From the NCBI GenBank assembly GCA_021157815.1, contig JAGGVT010000172.1:1-40457 (forward strand): a DNA stretch of 40,457 nucleotides. Reading direction: 5' to 3'. The translations under genes were made by a program, and so were the position numbers. Below, piece after piece: positions 2,077 through 13,727 of this stretch. Below the pieces are notes generated by a model. It made no database searches, was not told the origin of the DNA, and saw only the letters and a program-made list of their open reading frames with translations. How positions within the stretch are numbered: position 1 is the stretch's first letter; each line of letters begins with the position of its first letter. Source of the stretch: a bacterium. GTDB taxonomy: Bacteria > JAJVIF01 > JAGGVT01.

Positions 2077-3009
2077 ATGTGGATAAACGGATCTGAAATA
2101 TCTAAGGATTTATGGAGCGCCCTCGGGGAAAATGATTGTTGGTATGCGCTTTTACCTGTTGTGTTTGTACTTGCTGTGCTTGGAATTATTGCGTATAAAA
2201 AAAGAAAAGAAGATTGCAGGTTATCTTTTTTAAGCTATTCATTCCTGCTTTTAGCGACAGCGTTTTTTTTATTATTGCTTAAATTCCAAGTTCGTGTTTA
2301 CAGCTATTCATCCGGTTCCAGAGTGACAAGTATTAACTATCCGATTTTAAATGTTTTTTTTCAATTCCTCATATTTCTTTTCCTGGTTTCATTTATCTTT
2401 TTAATAATTTCATATATGTCAAGCAATAATAAGCTTCTTCGTATCAAATCTATCTTTAAATGGCTATTTCCTGCCTTAACAATTTTTATTAGTTGGCTTT
2501 ACATATATCTGAATATGCGCTTATTTGATTCGTCTCGCCCCGGATTAAAAGGCATATTTGACATGCTTTTTGACATTACCAATAACTATTTTCGTGTGAG
2601 TTATATAGGATTTCCAACACGTCAAATCGCGGTTGTAATTTTGTGTCTCTATTTCATTTGTATTTTTCGATATTTGTGGCTTCACTATCGGAACTCTATG
2701 AAATTATACTTTCCAATTGCAGCATCTGCACTATTGCTTGTTTCAGCATTCGTTTTTAGTGCAAAGGTCAGTTTCCTTGACTTTGAAATGCTTTTTAACG
2801 CTCGACATGTAAGGTATTCTTCGCACCACATGGATTATTTCCTGATTCACCTGGCATTTTGGATTGTGATGGTATCCTGGTTCACATTCTGGCGTTTCAA
2901 GTCACCTTTGATTGAACGTGTTGCGAAGGCTATTGCTATTGGGATTTCTCTTGGAAGCCTCATAATTATACTTCTTTTGCCACAATTAATCATAGGTCCC
3001 TGCATGTAA
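2077..3009 (+). CDS. Polytopic membrane protein, unknown function
   Basis: The 310 residues carry about eight hydrophobic segments (roughly 24-41, 52-70, 90-114, 128-146, 181-199, 209-228, 256-274 and 285-306), separated by short basic loops such as AYKKRKEDCR. It is therefore an integral inner-membrane protein. I see no transporter, kinase or enzyme signature. His/Tyr-rich loops (ARHVRYSSHHMDYF) lie before segment seven. The ATG lies directly after a CCCGGAC/GTCCGGG hairpin and lacks a clear ribosome binding site, so the start is uncertain. The sequence is richer in A+T than the following lipoprotein gene. No operon partner is evident. Confidence 0.75.
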   Translation: MWINGSEISKDLWSALGENDCWYALLPVVFVLAVLGIIAYKKRKEDCRLSFLSYSFLLLATAFFLLLLKFQVRVYSYSSGSRVTSINYPILNVFFQFLIFLFLVSFIFLIISYMSSNNKLLRIKSIFKWLFPALTIFISWLYIYLNMRLFDSSRPGLKGIFDMLFDITNNYFRVSYIGFPTRQIAVVILCLYFICIFRYLWLHYRNSMKLYFPIAASALLLVSAFVFSAKVSFLDFEMLFNARHVRYSSHHMDYFLIHLAFWIVMVSWFTFWRFKSPLIERVAKAIAIGISLGSLIIILLLPQLIIGPCM

Positions 3010-3283: not shown

Positions 3284-6229
3284 ATGTTTTTCTCATTTCA
3301 ACGCATCATGGGAGCAGTGTTCTTCCTTGTTGCAACGATGATGATTCTAGGCTGTTCGGGGGGTGGAAATCCTGTGGTTCCAACTACAGGTGGGAATAAC
3401 GACACACAGGCGATATACGATGGAGGCGCCAATCTTGGCGCTTTCACTTTGGCGCTTGATTCCGACAATCTCACGGCGACAATCGAACCGATTGATCGTG
3501 AGGCAGCCATGAATGTTTCACAATACGTGGACATCACAATACTTGGCCTTCAATGGGATCCTCTTGCCCGTCTCTGGGATATCGATGTTGAAGTCGAAAA
3601 CAGAACCCAATACGATGGTTATGGTCCCTGGATTGTTTTCACTGAGACAGGAGAACAGAAGATTCTCAACCAGGATGGTTTCATCTGGATTGGGAATAAT
3701 CCGGGTGAACCGCCCAAAAGGGTGCCTGTCATAGCATTTGCGAAAGATAATCCGCAAAGGGTTTTCCCAGCACGTTTCGCTGAAATTTTCCATCTGCAGA
3801 TTCATTGGCCTGATGGATGGCAGGGATTCCAGCCGATGGAGTTTTTCGTTGACGCCTCATATCCGCATCCAAGGCAGGAAGCGATAATAGAGCAACTTCA
3901 CATTGAGCCGATGACGATTCCTGAGCAGTTTAATCTGACAGGTTATATCAAGGACTGGCAGCATTCCTCAGGCGTGCCGTCTCTTGAGGCCTGGGTTGAT
4001 TTGACACCGATTGGCGGACCTCCTCATGAGCCGCTTTTCGATGACGGTAATCATGGCGACGGCGCTCCCCATGATGACATCTGGGGATGTAACTTCATGG
4101 GAATTATGACACCGGAGCCTGTACCATTGACAGTATATGCGCTCGACTTTGAGGGTTTCCAGTTTGAAAATGATGTTGTTTTTGGTTTTAACGTACCTCC
4201 TCCATGCCTTCCGATGGAAACTCTCGATGAGGGGCAAAATGGATTCATGGAGCCGCTCGAAATAATCATCCGTAATCAGGTTCAGTGGGAGGATGTCTGG
4301 TTTGAACTTCATCCTGATCCAGGCCATGAGCCTCCCTGGGTTGATTTTAACCTCGATCAGGTTGTTGTTGCAATGCTCGGTGAGAGAACATTCTCAGGAT
4401 ATTCCGTGCATATCGACTGCGTTAAGGAAATAGGCGGTCCCGATGGCGGACCTCACACGATTGTCGATTACACCGAGGAAATTCCCGGACCCGACTGCCC
4501 GGTCGAAAATGTGACTGATTATCCATATCAGATCGTGAAAACACCTCTAACAGTTGCGAACGATCACTTCTTTCACAACGAGCATGTTTATTCATGCGGC
4601 GGCGAGTGTGTTTCACAGCGCGATCTGGATAGGGGAAATGCTTCCAATATCCATGAACCCAGATGGGAAGCCTATCGCACCGAGGGTGAATGGATGAATT
4701 TCTGGGCAGAGCATGGTCCATATATGCCGCCTCCAATGGTTAATTTCTCCGAGGATATGGCTATTGTAGGAATGATTGGCGACAGGCCAACCACGGGATG
4801 GAATGTCGAAATCGACTGTGTTGAATTTATCAATGATGGTACTACCGACCCGGTAGTCCTGATTCACGCGGTTGAGGTTGAACCCGGTCCGAATTGTATT
4901 GTTCAACCGATTGAAACCCAACCATTCCACTTTATTGCAGTCCCCATGTTTGAGGGACGAATTGATCTCATTCTAAACCATGAAATTGACCCATGTGAAC
5001 CGCCACCATGTGAGGAAATAAGGCCTCTTGCGGAGGGTGACAATTCTGACATACACTGGTTTGTCGAGGAAATGTTCAAAGAACCATACCAGTGGGAGGA
5101 TTTCTGGGCACAGCATGGTGAGAACAGACCCGCACCTGAGGTTGACTGGGCAAGTGAATATGTTATCGCTCTGCTTCCTGATGACCGTCCCACAACCGGT
5201 TATTGGGTTCGCGTTGACTGCGTTAAGCTTCTCGAAGACCCCAGTTATGGCCGTATTACACAGGTTGAATATACACTGATGATTCCGGGTGAGAACTGCA
5301 TAGTTGAACCGGTTGTAACTCAGCCGTTCTTCTATTTTGCCGTACCGCAGTTGTTCAATTCACGGCCGGAATTCATTATGCATGATGAAGTGTATGAGTG
5401 TGAACCTCCACCGGAATGTCAGCCGATCAGGGAAATGGCGGAATGCAATTTCTCAAACATCCATCATCCGGTTGAGGAACTTTTCTTCACGATGGATCAA
5501 TGGACTAATTTCTGGCGGATGCATGATCCAAATAGTCAGCCTCCGGAATTTTACCAGGATGAACATGCAATTGCTTTGATGCTAGGCGACCGCCCCACTA
5601 CAGGATTCTGGATTCGAGAGGATTGTGTCCGCTTTATTGATGATGAGCCGGGGCATTTTGTAATTGAGGTTGAGTACACCGAGATGATTCCAGGTCCTGA
5701 TTGCGAGGTTCTGCAGGTTGTAACTCAGCCGGGTTTGTTCTTTACAATTCCGATATTCACTGAGTCCTATGTTGAATTCATCCACAATGAAGAGGTTTAC
5801 AGTTGCGAACCGCCACCCGATTGCGTGCCGATGGAACTTATCGATGAGGGCGTTTGGTCGAATGTCGATGTGCCACACGAGCAGATTATCTACAACAATG
5901 ATGAATGGTTCGATTTCTGGATGTGGCATAATCCTGATTCGAGCGTTCCACCGCCTCCAATCAATTTCGATGCGAACATGGTTGTTGTTACATGTCTCGG
6001 CATGCGCAATACTGGCGGGTTCTATGTGGAAATAGGCTGTGTTAAATTCATTGAAGACCTTTCAGGAATGCCGCCACAAATCATTGTGGACTACACCGAG
6101 TTCATTCCGGGTCGATCATGCATCGTGCCGCAGGTATTCACATACCCGTACCAGTTCGTAGCGGTACCGCGATTTGAGGGTGAGCCGGTATTCAACCATG
6201 CAGAAATTGTTTACGAATGTCAGGGATAA
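3284..6229 (+). CDS. Large lipoprotein with five tandem PrcB_C-like domains
   Basis: The 981-residue product starts with a lipoprotein signal peptide ending ILGC (lipid Cys24) and a Gly-rich linker. An N-terminal beta module (about 40-300) contains the acidic loop FDDGNHGDGAPHDDIW, resembling calcium-binding loops. From about residue 308 there are five repeats of about 135 residues. Each begins with a Pro-Cys segment, has a WxxFW-type helix (QWEDFWAQHG, EWMNFWAEHG, QWTNFWRMHD), then a GxRxTxG(Y/F/W) strand (LGDRPTTGFWI, IGDRPTTGWNV), a conserved Cys and a closing VTQPxxFxxxP strand. This GxRxT-G pattern is characteristic of PrcB_C domains (Pfam PrcB_C, named from a treponemal protease-complex subunit). 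A surface adhesion or inhibitor-like role is inference. GGAGG lies 8 bases before the ATG. Confidence 0.85.
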   Translation: MFFSFQRIMGAVFFLVATMMILGCSGGGNPVVPTTGGNNDTQAIYDGGANLGAFTLALDSDNLTATIEPIDREAAMNVSQYVDITILGLQWDPLARLWDIDVEVENRTQYDGYGPWIVFTETGEQKILNQDGFIWIGNNPGEPPKRVPVIAFAKDNPQRVFPARFAEIFHLQIHWPDGWQGFQPMEFFVDASYPHPRQEAIIEQLHIEPMTIPEQFNLTGYIKDWQHSSGVPSLEAWVDLTPIGGPPHEPLFDDGNHGDGAPHDDIWGCNFMGIMTPEPVPLTVYALDFEGFQFENDVVFGFNVPPPCLPMETLDEGQNGFMEPLEIIIRNQVQWEDVWFELHPDPGHEPPWVDFNLDQVVVAMLGERTFSGYSVHIDCVKEIGGPDGGPHTIVDYTEEIPGPDCPVENVTDYPYQIVKTPLTVANDHFFHNEHVYSCGGECVSQRDLDRGNASNIHEPRWEAYRTEGEWMNFWAEHGPYMPPPMVNFSEDMAIVGMIGDRPTTGWNVEIDCVEFINDGTTDPVVLIHAVEVEPGPNCIVQPIETQPFHFIAVPMFEGRIDLILNHEIDPCEPPPCEEIRPLAEGDNSDIHWFVEEMFKEPYQWEDFWAQHGENRPAPEVDWASEYVIALLPDDRPTTGYWVRVDCVKLLEDPSYGRITQVEYTLMIPGENCIVEPVVTQPFFYFAVPQLFNSRPEFIMHDEVYECEPPPECQPIREMAECNFSNIHHPVEELFFTMDQWTNFWRMHDPNSQPPEFYQDEHAIALMLGDRPTTGFWIREDCVRFIDDEPGHFVIEVEYTEMIPGPDCEVLQVVTQPGLFFTIPIFTESYVEFIHNEEVYSCEPPPDCVPMELIDEGVWSNVDVPHEQIIYNNDEWFDFWMWHNPDSSVPPPPINFDANMVVVTCLGMRNTGGFYVEIGCVKFIEDLSGMPPQIIVDYTEFIPGRSCIVPQVFTYPYQFVAVPRFEGEPVFNHAEIVYECQG

Positions 6230-11386: not shown

Positions 11387-12196
11387 CTAACTATCAAGTT
11401 TATATCCAAAAAAACGACAAGAATAAGCACCTTCACCTACTTTATTGCTACCCAATGAACCATTCGGAATTTTAATCCTCATTTCAGAAAAACCCAAATC
11501 TTTCTTATATTCCATAGAATAGCTATAATGATTAATAACCCATGTTCTTGAAAAAGTATTATTTTGAATAAAGCCCCCATACCAGTACTTATTGCTTTCT
11601 ATCGTTGTGATACCAGCGCCTTTGTAGCCCAGTGGATCTCCAGTTATATTTAATAATTCAACAGGCATATCTATAGTTATATTTTCCCCATTATATGAAA
11701 TAGAAATTACATAAGGACCCATTGGCCAAGTAATCCCACTATCGCCTTCACTGAATTCAAAGCGCCAAGTTCCAAACATCAATTCGCCCGGAATTTGTTC
11801 TATGATTTTAACATCACATGAGATTATCTTAATACCTGCAATATTTGCTGGTACATCAATAATTGTTTATGTTGAAATTGCTGGTTGGTTTACTTGTGTC
11901 GTGGAAATTTCTTCTAGAATAATTGTTCCATCTTTTGCATAAGCACGCACTTTAGTAGTGACTTCAATGTGGTTATAAGCGCTATTTCTGGTATTTTCTA
12001 ATTGGATAAACCACTGTCCGTCTTTTTCCCCTCCATCATATTGCCGAAATGAAGCGTTAACCCCACCCATTTCATTTGAAAAGCTATCATTTGGAAAACC
12101 AGTATCATTTCCATTTCCTACTGGGTTGCCACCTCCACCACAACTTAAAGAACATAACATTGAAAACAGAAATATTAATAAACAGAAACTTTTCAT
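11387..12196 (-). pseudogene. Lipoprotein gene interrupted by one in-frame TAA
   Basis: From ATG 12196 (AAGGTGG 8 bases upstream) the frame encodes a lipoprotein signal with SLSC lipobox and a Gly-rich linker, then a beta-rich domain (QWFIQLENTRNSAYNHIEV). It stops at a single TAA (11869-11867) after about 109 codons. The same frame then stays open and protein-like to 11387: TIIDVPANIAGIKIISCDVK, then ELMFGTWRFEF and a C-terminus RFFGYKLDS. The total is 270 codons with no other stop. The beta-strand style before and after the TAA is continuous. A recent nonsense mutation is the simplest reading; a sequencing error or stop-codon readthrough remain possible. A paralogue might exist elsewhere. 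Function unknown; it would be anchored in a membrane facing the periplasm or outside. Confidence 0.65.
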
Positions 12197-12227
12197 GTTG
12201 TTAGCCACCTTGAACCAGTCATCTCAT

Positions 12228-12520
12228 AATGATTTAATATCATTGCTGTCCAAAACATTTTAAGGTTCTGAATTATCGAACGCAAAATTGCGCGTTTTGG
12301 ACGGATATTCATCGATTTTTCGCGAATTCAGATTCAGGTCTATTTAATCTCGAATTCAGCTGTCCAAATGCTGTTTGATACTTGATTCACCTTGATTATG
12401 TCCTAAAAGACCTTTATTTCAGGTGTTCAGAGTTGGTTTTCGTCAATATTATAATTCGTAATCACATTTCAGCTGTCCAAGAAATCTTATTTTGGACAAG
12501 TATGATTTAATATCATTATT
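12228..12520. repeat. Region bounded by 16-bp direct repeats with TGTCCAAA motifs
   Basis: ATGATTTAATATCATT occurs at 12229-12244 and again at 12502-12517. Between them TGTCCAAA-type words recur in both orientations, including GTCCAAAAC (12248-12256) against GTTTTGGAC (12294-12302), and TGTCCAAG (12474) against TTTTGGACA (12490-12498). No gene is present. It could be a small insertion with a target duplication, or an operator-rich leader. The rest of the gap to 12614 shows nothing else. Confidence 0.5.
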
Positions 12521-12614
12521 GCATAATAGCAGAGTTGTCAAATTTTGCGCAAATTCGCAATTCGTAACAATAGGACAATTTCCCGGTTAACCGTTATTTA
12601 CAGCTTACATATAG

Positions 12615-13286
12615 TTATGGAAACCAGGATACGGATTTAAGTTCTTTAATAAAGTACTTTGCAGTGATCCAACCCTTCTCTCCATTCTGTGTTTGTATTA
12701 ATGCACCTTTCCCGTCAATTCGGATGAGTTCCACCTTTTCACCATGTTTTACTTTTGCGACCACCTGTGACCTAGTTGAATAGTCATCCCAAATATTTAT
12801 TTCCTTTACTATATCCCCAGTTGACCTGTCAAATCCATTGATTGTAACAAATTGTGGAATTGTATATTTCTTGCTTACCCAACCTTCCCATCCTACATCC
12901 CCCAACGTAACGCGAAAACGTATCCACCCATTTTTCTCCTCAAGTACATACAAAGGCTCGTTTTGAAATAATGGTCCAGTTTCATCTAAGTCAAAACTCG
13001 TCCCTGGTCCTTTCCTAATGTTTAATTCTGAGATTGCACATTTCCGTGTTTCTAAAATTTCTTTAAGTTCTTTCTGAGTTGGTTAATATTTTAACCTCAG
13101 CTTTTCTGCTTCCCGTGCTCTTTGATTTTCTGCTTCCCACGCTTTGGATTTTGCTCTTTCGTAATTAGGGGCTGCCAGTGCATTTAAAAACCATATAATC
13201 GCAATTATTATTAAGATGCCTGAACAACAGCCTATTCGTGGTGGGTTAGCTTTTTTTGTTGCTCTCAATCGAGATCGATCTCCCAT
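12615..13286 (-). pseudogene. TM-anchored SH3b-domain protein interrupted by one in-frame TAA
   Basis: From ATG 13286 the first part encodes a basic N-terminus, one hydrophobic segment (CCSGILIIIAIIWFLNALAA) and a charged helix (EAENQRAREAEKLRLKY), and meets TAA at 13085-13083. The same frame continues with PTQKELKEILETRKCAISEL, then the typical bacterial SH3 opening LNIRKGPGTSFD and GWIRFRV...GWEGWV, and a second SH3-like unit (WDDYSTRSQVVAKVKHGEKV...GWITAKYF). Between the TAA and a TTG inside the first SH3 domain there is no ATG, GTG or TTG, so the complete domain cannot be made from its own start. One gene broken by one stop is the best reading. Intact relatives would be cell-wall or ligand-binding membrane proteins. 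Confidence 0.65.
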
Positions 13287-13415: not shown

Positions 13416-13727
13416 TCACCCCGACACAAACCGCTCAATCGGCCCCAACGACCTTCCCTGCTTCATGCTAATCGAGCTTACATGGAATCCCATTTGGGTT
13501 AGGGCTTTGTTGACAGGCTCGGATATACTTTCCAATTCGCGGATGGTGGATTTGCTTTCAGCGGTTAAATCAACTCTTATCTGCTTGCCGACGCTTAGAA
13601 TCCTGCCGGCGATGTCACCCAGTCGCGATGTCGATACCAGGAAGAGGAACTCGGATGTTGTGATTTCATCATCGTTGATTATCTCAGTGGCTTTGTGCAT
13701 CAACAACTCGAATATGTAACCTGGCAA
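13416..13727 (-). CDS. FliK-like C-terminal fragment (hook-length control family), 5' end cut by REP
   Basis: The 103 codons include FLVSTSRLGDIAGRILSVGK, then IRVDLTAESKSTIRELE and VNKALTQMGFHVSSISMKQG. This is the LxxxxLGxIxVxI...VxxxAxSxxxxxxLxxxxxxLxxALxxxGxxVxxIxV pattern of the FliK C-terminal (Flg_hook) domain, the part that binds the export gate in flagellar systems. Full FliK proteins are several hundred residues, so this is a fragment or a stand-alone domain. The first codons (LPGY) come from a REP element at 13716-13761; ATG 13700 is a likelier start if the gene is expressed. The assignment rests on pattern only. It may be related to the flagellin-like gene at 9.8 kb. Confidence 0.4.
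   Translation of the reverse strand: MPGYIFELLMHKATEIINDDEITTSEFLFLVSTSRLGDIAGRILSVGKQIRVDLTAESKSTIRELESISEPVNKALTQMGFHVSSISMKQGRSLGPIERFVSG

What the first reader, a model, noticed from the sequence alone, without database searches (positions are those of the whole stretch)
11387..13286. Two adjacent genes each interrupted by exactly one in-frame TAA
The lipoprotein frame 12196-11387 (270 codons) and the TM-SH3b frame 13286-12615 (224 codons) are each open and protein-like on both sides of a single TAA (11869-11867 and 13085-13083). In the SH3b gene no usable start codon exists between the TAA and the middle of the first SH3 domain, so the domain cannot be made separately. Two consecutive genes with the same lesion suggest either a decaying AT-rich patch, or UAA readthrough or recoding restricted to these genes. 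TAA ends other genes in the window normally (for example at 3009 and 6229), which argues against a genome-wide code change.
Basis: partly seen in the sequence, partly recalled or inferred. Interest (0 to 1): 0.6.

Follow-up and report, generated by a model that had tools for sequence, protein, structure and literature searches.

The report
Two neighbouring genes broken by stops
Two small neighbouring surface-protein genes in a draft genome of an uncultured bacterium each carry one early stop signal, most likely ordinary recent gene breakage in an AT-rich stretch that also holds a small mobile-element-like repeat, not a new way of reading the genetic code.

Summary
The lipoprotein frame 12196-11387 and the TM-SH3b frame 13286-12615 are each open but for one TAA (11869-11867, 13085-13083); chance frames of that length would carry about 19 and 14 stops. 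The SH3b domains lie wholly after the TAA, with no usable start before them. The genome (a 3.2 Mb, 221-contig draft) uses the standard code: TAA ends half of the sampled genes, both release factors are intact, and no stop-reading tRNA was found. Other broken frames in a 755-kb sample carry TAG and TGA, so nothing is special to UAA. No relative aligning across either TAA was found, so conserved readthrough has no support and cannot be tested here. New: between the two genes sits a 264-bp repeat (12241-12504) with imperfect 15-bp inverted ends and a 9-12 bp target duplication, a MITE-like insertion 45 bp upstream of the lipoprotein start. Both genes are AT-rich, atypical in codon use, and not found in the phylum's three other genomes. 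Best reading: two recently nonsense-inactivated, lineage-specific genes in a patch under weak selection; a draft-assembly error or strain variant is the main rival. Ordinary; low interest.

The parts
11870..12196 (-). lipoprotein gene, part before the stop: signal peptide with lipobox (LCSLSC), 109 codons
   Evidence: AAGGTGG ribosome-binding-like site 8 bases before the ATG
11867..11869 (-). premature in-frame TAA of the lipoprotein gene
11387..11866 (-). lipoprotein gene, part after the stop: 159 open codons and terminal TAG; first possible start (TTG) is 28 codons after the TAA
12241..12504 (-). 264-bp dispersed repeat, MITE-like, with imperfect 15-bp terminal inverted repeats CAT-NNN-TGTCCAAAA; no ORF of 80 aa or more
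   Evidence: 87-89% identical partial copies at G000:C101, C127 end and C28 end; TIR pattern occurs only at the ends of these copies
12232..12240 (-). target-site duplication ATATTAAAT (9-12 bp by how the ends are drawn), copy on the lipoprotein side
12505..12513 (-). target-site duplication ATATTAAAT, copy on the SH3b side
13086..13286 (-). TM-SH3b gene, part before the stop: pseudopilin-like membrane helix and start of a charged linker, 67 codons
13083..13085 (-). premature in-frame TAA of the TM-SH3b gene
12615..13082 (-). TM-SH3b gene, part after the stop: 155 open codons with two bacterial SH3 domains, terminal TAA
   Evidence: Pfam SH3_3 E 1.3e-10, two stretches; PF08239 profile hits at 13031-12864 and 12779-12654

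Best explanation
Two lineage-specific, probably acquired genes (a secreted lipoprotein and a membrane-anchored SH3b protein) have each recently taken a nonsense substitution and now make only truncated products: a 109-residue lipoprotein stub and a 67-residue membrane stub without its SH3 domains. They lie in an AT-rich patch under weak selection. A MITE-like element inserted 45 bp upstream of the lipoprotein start, which may have parted that gene from its promoter. Shown: one stop each, standard code, broken frames with other stops elsewhere, a repeat with target duplication between the genes. Inferred: loss of function, recent age, acquisition, and the link between insertion and decay.
For: One TAA in otherwise open frames. 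SH3 domains wholly beyond the stop with no start before them. Standard code: TAA ends 230 of 464 long ORFs, RF1 and RF2 full length and over cut-off, no anticodon reading a stop among 41 tRNA matches. Other broken frames carry TAG (L081 8283; DUF4875-like) and TGA (L048 11787; TPR_12 match 46-116 runs across the stop at residue 90). TAA is the commonest outcome of a random single-base nonsense change in these genes, 60 of 121 and 54 of 121, so two TAAs in two genes is no signal. Atypical AT-rich genes with GC3 0.23-0.32 against a genome mean of 0.46, no relatives found. MITE-like insertion between them. About 5-6% of random substitutions in these frames create a stop, so one stop each fits roughly 2.5% neutral divergence, in line with no frameshift and no second stop (inference).
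Against: The frames stay open for 155-159 codons after the stop, which continuing translation would also explain. Two adjacent genes with the same lesion is unusual for this genome: about two other credible cases in the rest of the 755-kb sample, so a few percent by chance (inference). No relative could be aligned across the stops, so the ancestral intact state is inferred, not seen. Reads were not available.
Confidence: 0.72

Rival explanations
1. Assembly or consensus artefact: the draft genome (probably a metagenome bin) carries a base error or a minority-strain variant at one or both positions, and the genes are intact in the population.
For: The genome is a 221-contig draft, 90.9% complete. 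The flanks are otherwise undamaged. Single-base differences between strains are expected in bins (general knowledge).
Against: It would take two independent errors in one 2-kb stretch, both creating stops. Broken frames are rare in the 755-kb sample, so the consensus is not generally poor.
Confidence: 0.13
2. UAA readthrough or low-level leakiness: ribosomes pass the TAA at some rate and make small amounts of the full-length proteins, so the downstream frames stay under selection.
For: Long open frames after the stop, in the best-scoring frame of six. The SH3b stop is followed by C (TAAC), a leaky context in other bacteria (own knowledge). Belinky et al. 2021 (PMC7918605) report widespread in-frame stops in bacterial genes with local dN/dS below 1 (TAA 0.74). 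RNA after the lipoprotein stop folds slightly better than shuffles (z -2.1).
Against: UAA is read by both RF1 and RF2 (own knowledge), and both are present. No suppressor tRNA found. The two stops share no context (TAT TAA CCA; ACA TAA ACA), and the RNA after the SH3b stop is no better folded than shuffles (z +0.8). Nothing shows conservation.
Confidence: 0.1
3. Each pair of frames is really two genes, the second starting from an internal or non-standard start codon.
For: The halves are separately open. The TTG at 11782 or ATG at 11779 could start a product of about 130 residues.
Against: The SH3b half has no ATG/GTG/TTG until 43 codons after the TAA, inside SH3 domain 1. An internally started lipoprotein half would lack an export signal. 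No free-standing homologue was found.
Confidence: 0.05

Closest known systems
Nonsense-mutation pseudogenes of bacteria
   Same: Otherwise intact frame cut by one stop, little other damage, gene without a known conserved role; broken frames with other stops occur elsewhere in the same genome.
   Different: Two adjacent genes hit, and no intact parent or orthologue is available for comparison.
In-frame stops with suspected readthrough (Belinky et al. 2021, PMC7918605)
   Same: Single in-frame stop with an open, protein-like frame on both sides.
   Different: Those cases were accepted only when the stop was found at the same place in two or more genomes; here there is one genome and no relative.
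Miniature inverted-repeat transposable elements (MITEs)
   Same: 264 bp, no ORF of 80 aa or more, inverted ends, target duplication at two independent sites.
   Different: No autonomous partner element was found in the draft, so the transposase family is unassigned.

Membership tests
Nonsense pseudogene | premature stop truncates a frame that is otherwise gene-like | tested here: met
   SH3 domains lost by truncation
Nonsense pseudogene | intact orthologue aligns across the stop | tested here: inconclusive
   no relative found in the phylum, genome contigs, viral or plasmid collections
Nonsense pseudogene | no selection on the part after the stop | not testable with these tools
   needs close relatives or strain reads
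UAA readthrough or recoded gene | stop conserved in relatives with intact flanks | tested here: inconclusive
   no relatives found
UAA readthrough or recoded gene | decoding machinery for UAA (suppressor tRNA or altered release factors) | tested here: not met
   41 tRNA matches, none reading a stop; genome 91% complete and the Thr and Tyr tRNAs not seen; RF1, RF2 full length
UAA readthrough or recoded gene | shared stop context or recoding signal at both stops | tested here: not met
   different flanking codons; no shared folded structure
Genome-wide stop reassignment | TAA rare or absent as terminator | tested here: not met
   TAA ends 230 of 464 long ORFs
MITE (12241-12504) | short, non-coding, repeated in the genome | tested here: met
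   partial copies at C101, C127 and C28, 87-89% identical
MITE (12241-12504) | terminal inverted repeats and target-site duplication | tested here: met
   imperfect 15-bp ends CAT-NNN-TGTCCAAAA; duplications ATATTAAAT (window) and TACGCATTT (C127/C28, inferred to be the two sides of one copy)
MITE (12241-12504) | parent autonomous transposon with the same ends | tested here: not met
   exact TIR pattern found only at the MITE copies in the draft, which is incomplete

The most novel reading that the evidence does not exclude
Both TAAs are tolerated or leaky stops that keep two neighbouring cell-surface genes at low expression, a local UAA-readthrough control shared by adjacent genes.
Probability: 0.05. 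Interest if true: 0.65.

Novelty: new member of a known kind. Interest (0 to 1): 0.12.

Why it matters
It matters little. It warns that single in-frame stops in draft genomes should be judged against the genome's background of broken genes before recoding is proposed. If readthrough were real it would be a rare case of UAA leakiness in two neighbouring genes.

Tried and rejected
Genome-wide recoding: rejected. Stop type specific to UAA: rejected by TAG and TGA cases. Several other same-frame pairs in the scan turned out to be normal neighbouring genes, for example FtsA/FtsZ-like in L063, a pair ending in an RlmN-like gene in L068, and ribosomal proteins L21/L27-like in L057 (identified by eye). 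Single-sequence AlphaFold models of both read-through frames were poor (mean pLDDT 47 and 36), so whether the lipoprotein stop falls inside a folded domain was not settled. I suspected an FxLYD-like domain there by eye, but Pfam gave no support. Searches for relatives in GTDB contigs, IMG/VR and plasmids gave no protein aligning across either stop, apart from one weak Deinococcus plasmid hit to the linker and first SH3 domain (34% identity) that I did not pursue.

Full report
Observation. The minus-strand frames 12196-11387 and 13286-12615 are as described: each has one internal TAA and is otherwise open. This is not chance. Under a first-order null the frames would hold 18.9 and 13.7 stops, and none of 20,000 simulations had one or none. 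The same frame is the best of six on both sides of both stops. Third-position GC is low on both sides (0.23/0.24 for the lipoprotein, 0.27/0.32 for the SH3b gene), while the mean for long ORFs of this genome is 0.46. By a codon model trained on the genome both genes are atypical and score close to or below the intergenic model, as acquired or decaying genes often do.

The genes. The first starts with a lipoprotein signal (LCSLSC) and has no Pfam or NCBIfam match over a cut-off. The second has a membrane helix, a charged linker and two bacterial SH3 domains (Pfam SH3_3, E 1.3e-10). Its helix region resembles the pseudopilin N-termini of the same phylum (PNYERAKSKAWEAE against PNYIKAKDKAKEAE), but it lacks the GFTLIE cleavage motif and is probably just an anchor (inference). 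The SH3 domains lie wholly after the TAA, and the next usable start is inside the first domain.

Relatives. No convincing relative aligning across either stop was found in the three other genomes held for the phylum, in genome contigs, in viral contigs or in plasmids. The pattern-based scans reach only close relatives; a pseudopilin match in G002 (query 15-73) and a Deinococcus plasmid hit (query 60-144) run over the SH3b stop by a few residues but are weak and of other architecture. PF08239 finds only this SH3b gene in its own genome.

Genetic code. In a 755-kb sample, 230 of 464 long ORFs end in TAA. RF1 and RF2 are each present, full length and over cut-off. Of 41 tRNA matches none reads a stop codon; the draft is 91% complete and the Thr and Tyr tRNAs were not seen, so the list is not full. 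The two stops share neither flanking codons nor folding.

Background of broken genes. A scan of the sample for single stops with long open frames on both sides and no start soon after gave 12 candidates, six of them in the best frame throughout. By eye two of those six are normal neighbouring genes and one is weak. Credible broken frames besides the focal pair are a DUF4875-like lipoprotein cut by TAG (L081 8283) and a TPR protein cut by TGA, where the TPR_12 match runs across the stop (L048 11787). Broken genes thus exist with all three stops. In the focal genes about half of all single-base nonsense changes give TAA, so the shared TAA carries little information. The adjacency is mildly unusual, a few percent by a rough estimate, and points to a shared local cause.

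The patch. Between the two genes lies a 264-bp repeat (12241-12504) with partial copies at C101, C127 and C28, 87-89% identical, all cut by contig ends. Its ends are imperfect 15-bp inverted repeats, CATACTTGTCCAAAA and CATTGCTGTCCAAAA, a pattern found nowhere else in the draft. The flanks repeat ATATTAAAT here and TACGCATTT at the C127/C28 site, which look like the two sides of one insertion. The true duplication is 9-12 bp, depending on how the ends are drawn. The element ends 45 bases before the lipoprotein start and may have displaced its promoter; this is inference. Short matches to its end occur in one other genome of the class (G003).

Conclusion. The best reading is two recently inactivated, lineage-specific genes in a weakly constrained AT-rich patch. 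A draft-assembly error or strain variant is the main rival. Readthrough has no positive evidence; the general idea is published (Belinky et al. 2021, PMC7918605), but there stops were accepted only when shared by two or more genomes. Interest is low.

Noticed in passing
window 12241-12504; L087/L151, L088/L152, L089/L053: 264-bp MITE-like repeat with imperfect 15-bp inverted ends and 9-12 bp target duplication; TTGGACAGCTGAA motifs repeat inside it. No autonomous partner found in the draft.
   Followed up: partly
L131, L133, L134 (G003), L132 (G001): About 30-bp matches to the left end of the element (CTTGTCCAAAATCAGATTATCTTGGACAGC) at several places in G003, perhaps a related family of repeats in another genome of the class.
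   Followed up: partly
L081 7947-8564 (contig C57): DUF4875-like lipoprotein frame cut by a single in-frame TAG.
   Followed up: partly
L048 12054-11632 (contig C23): TPR protein frame cut by an in-frame TGA; the TPR match runs across the stop.
   Followed up: partly
window 13416-13727 (-): Small ORF of 103 aa with a FliK C-terminal-like domain (Flg_hook E 8.9e-6, below cut-off) standing alone next to the broken pair.
   Followed up: no
window 13102-13149: Two adjacent 24-base copies (71% alike) in the SH3b linker, an internal tandem duplication just before the stop.
   Followed up: no
window 3284-6229 (+): 981-aa lipoprotein built of several tandem copies of a domain of roughly 110-130 aa (motif GDRPTTGFWI), seen by eye only.
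   Followed up: no
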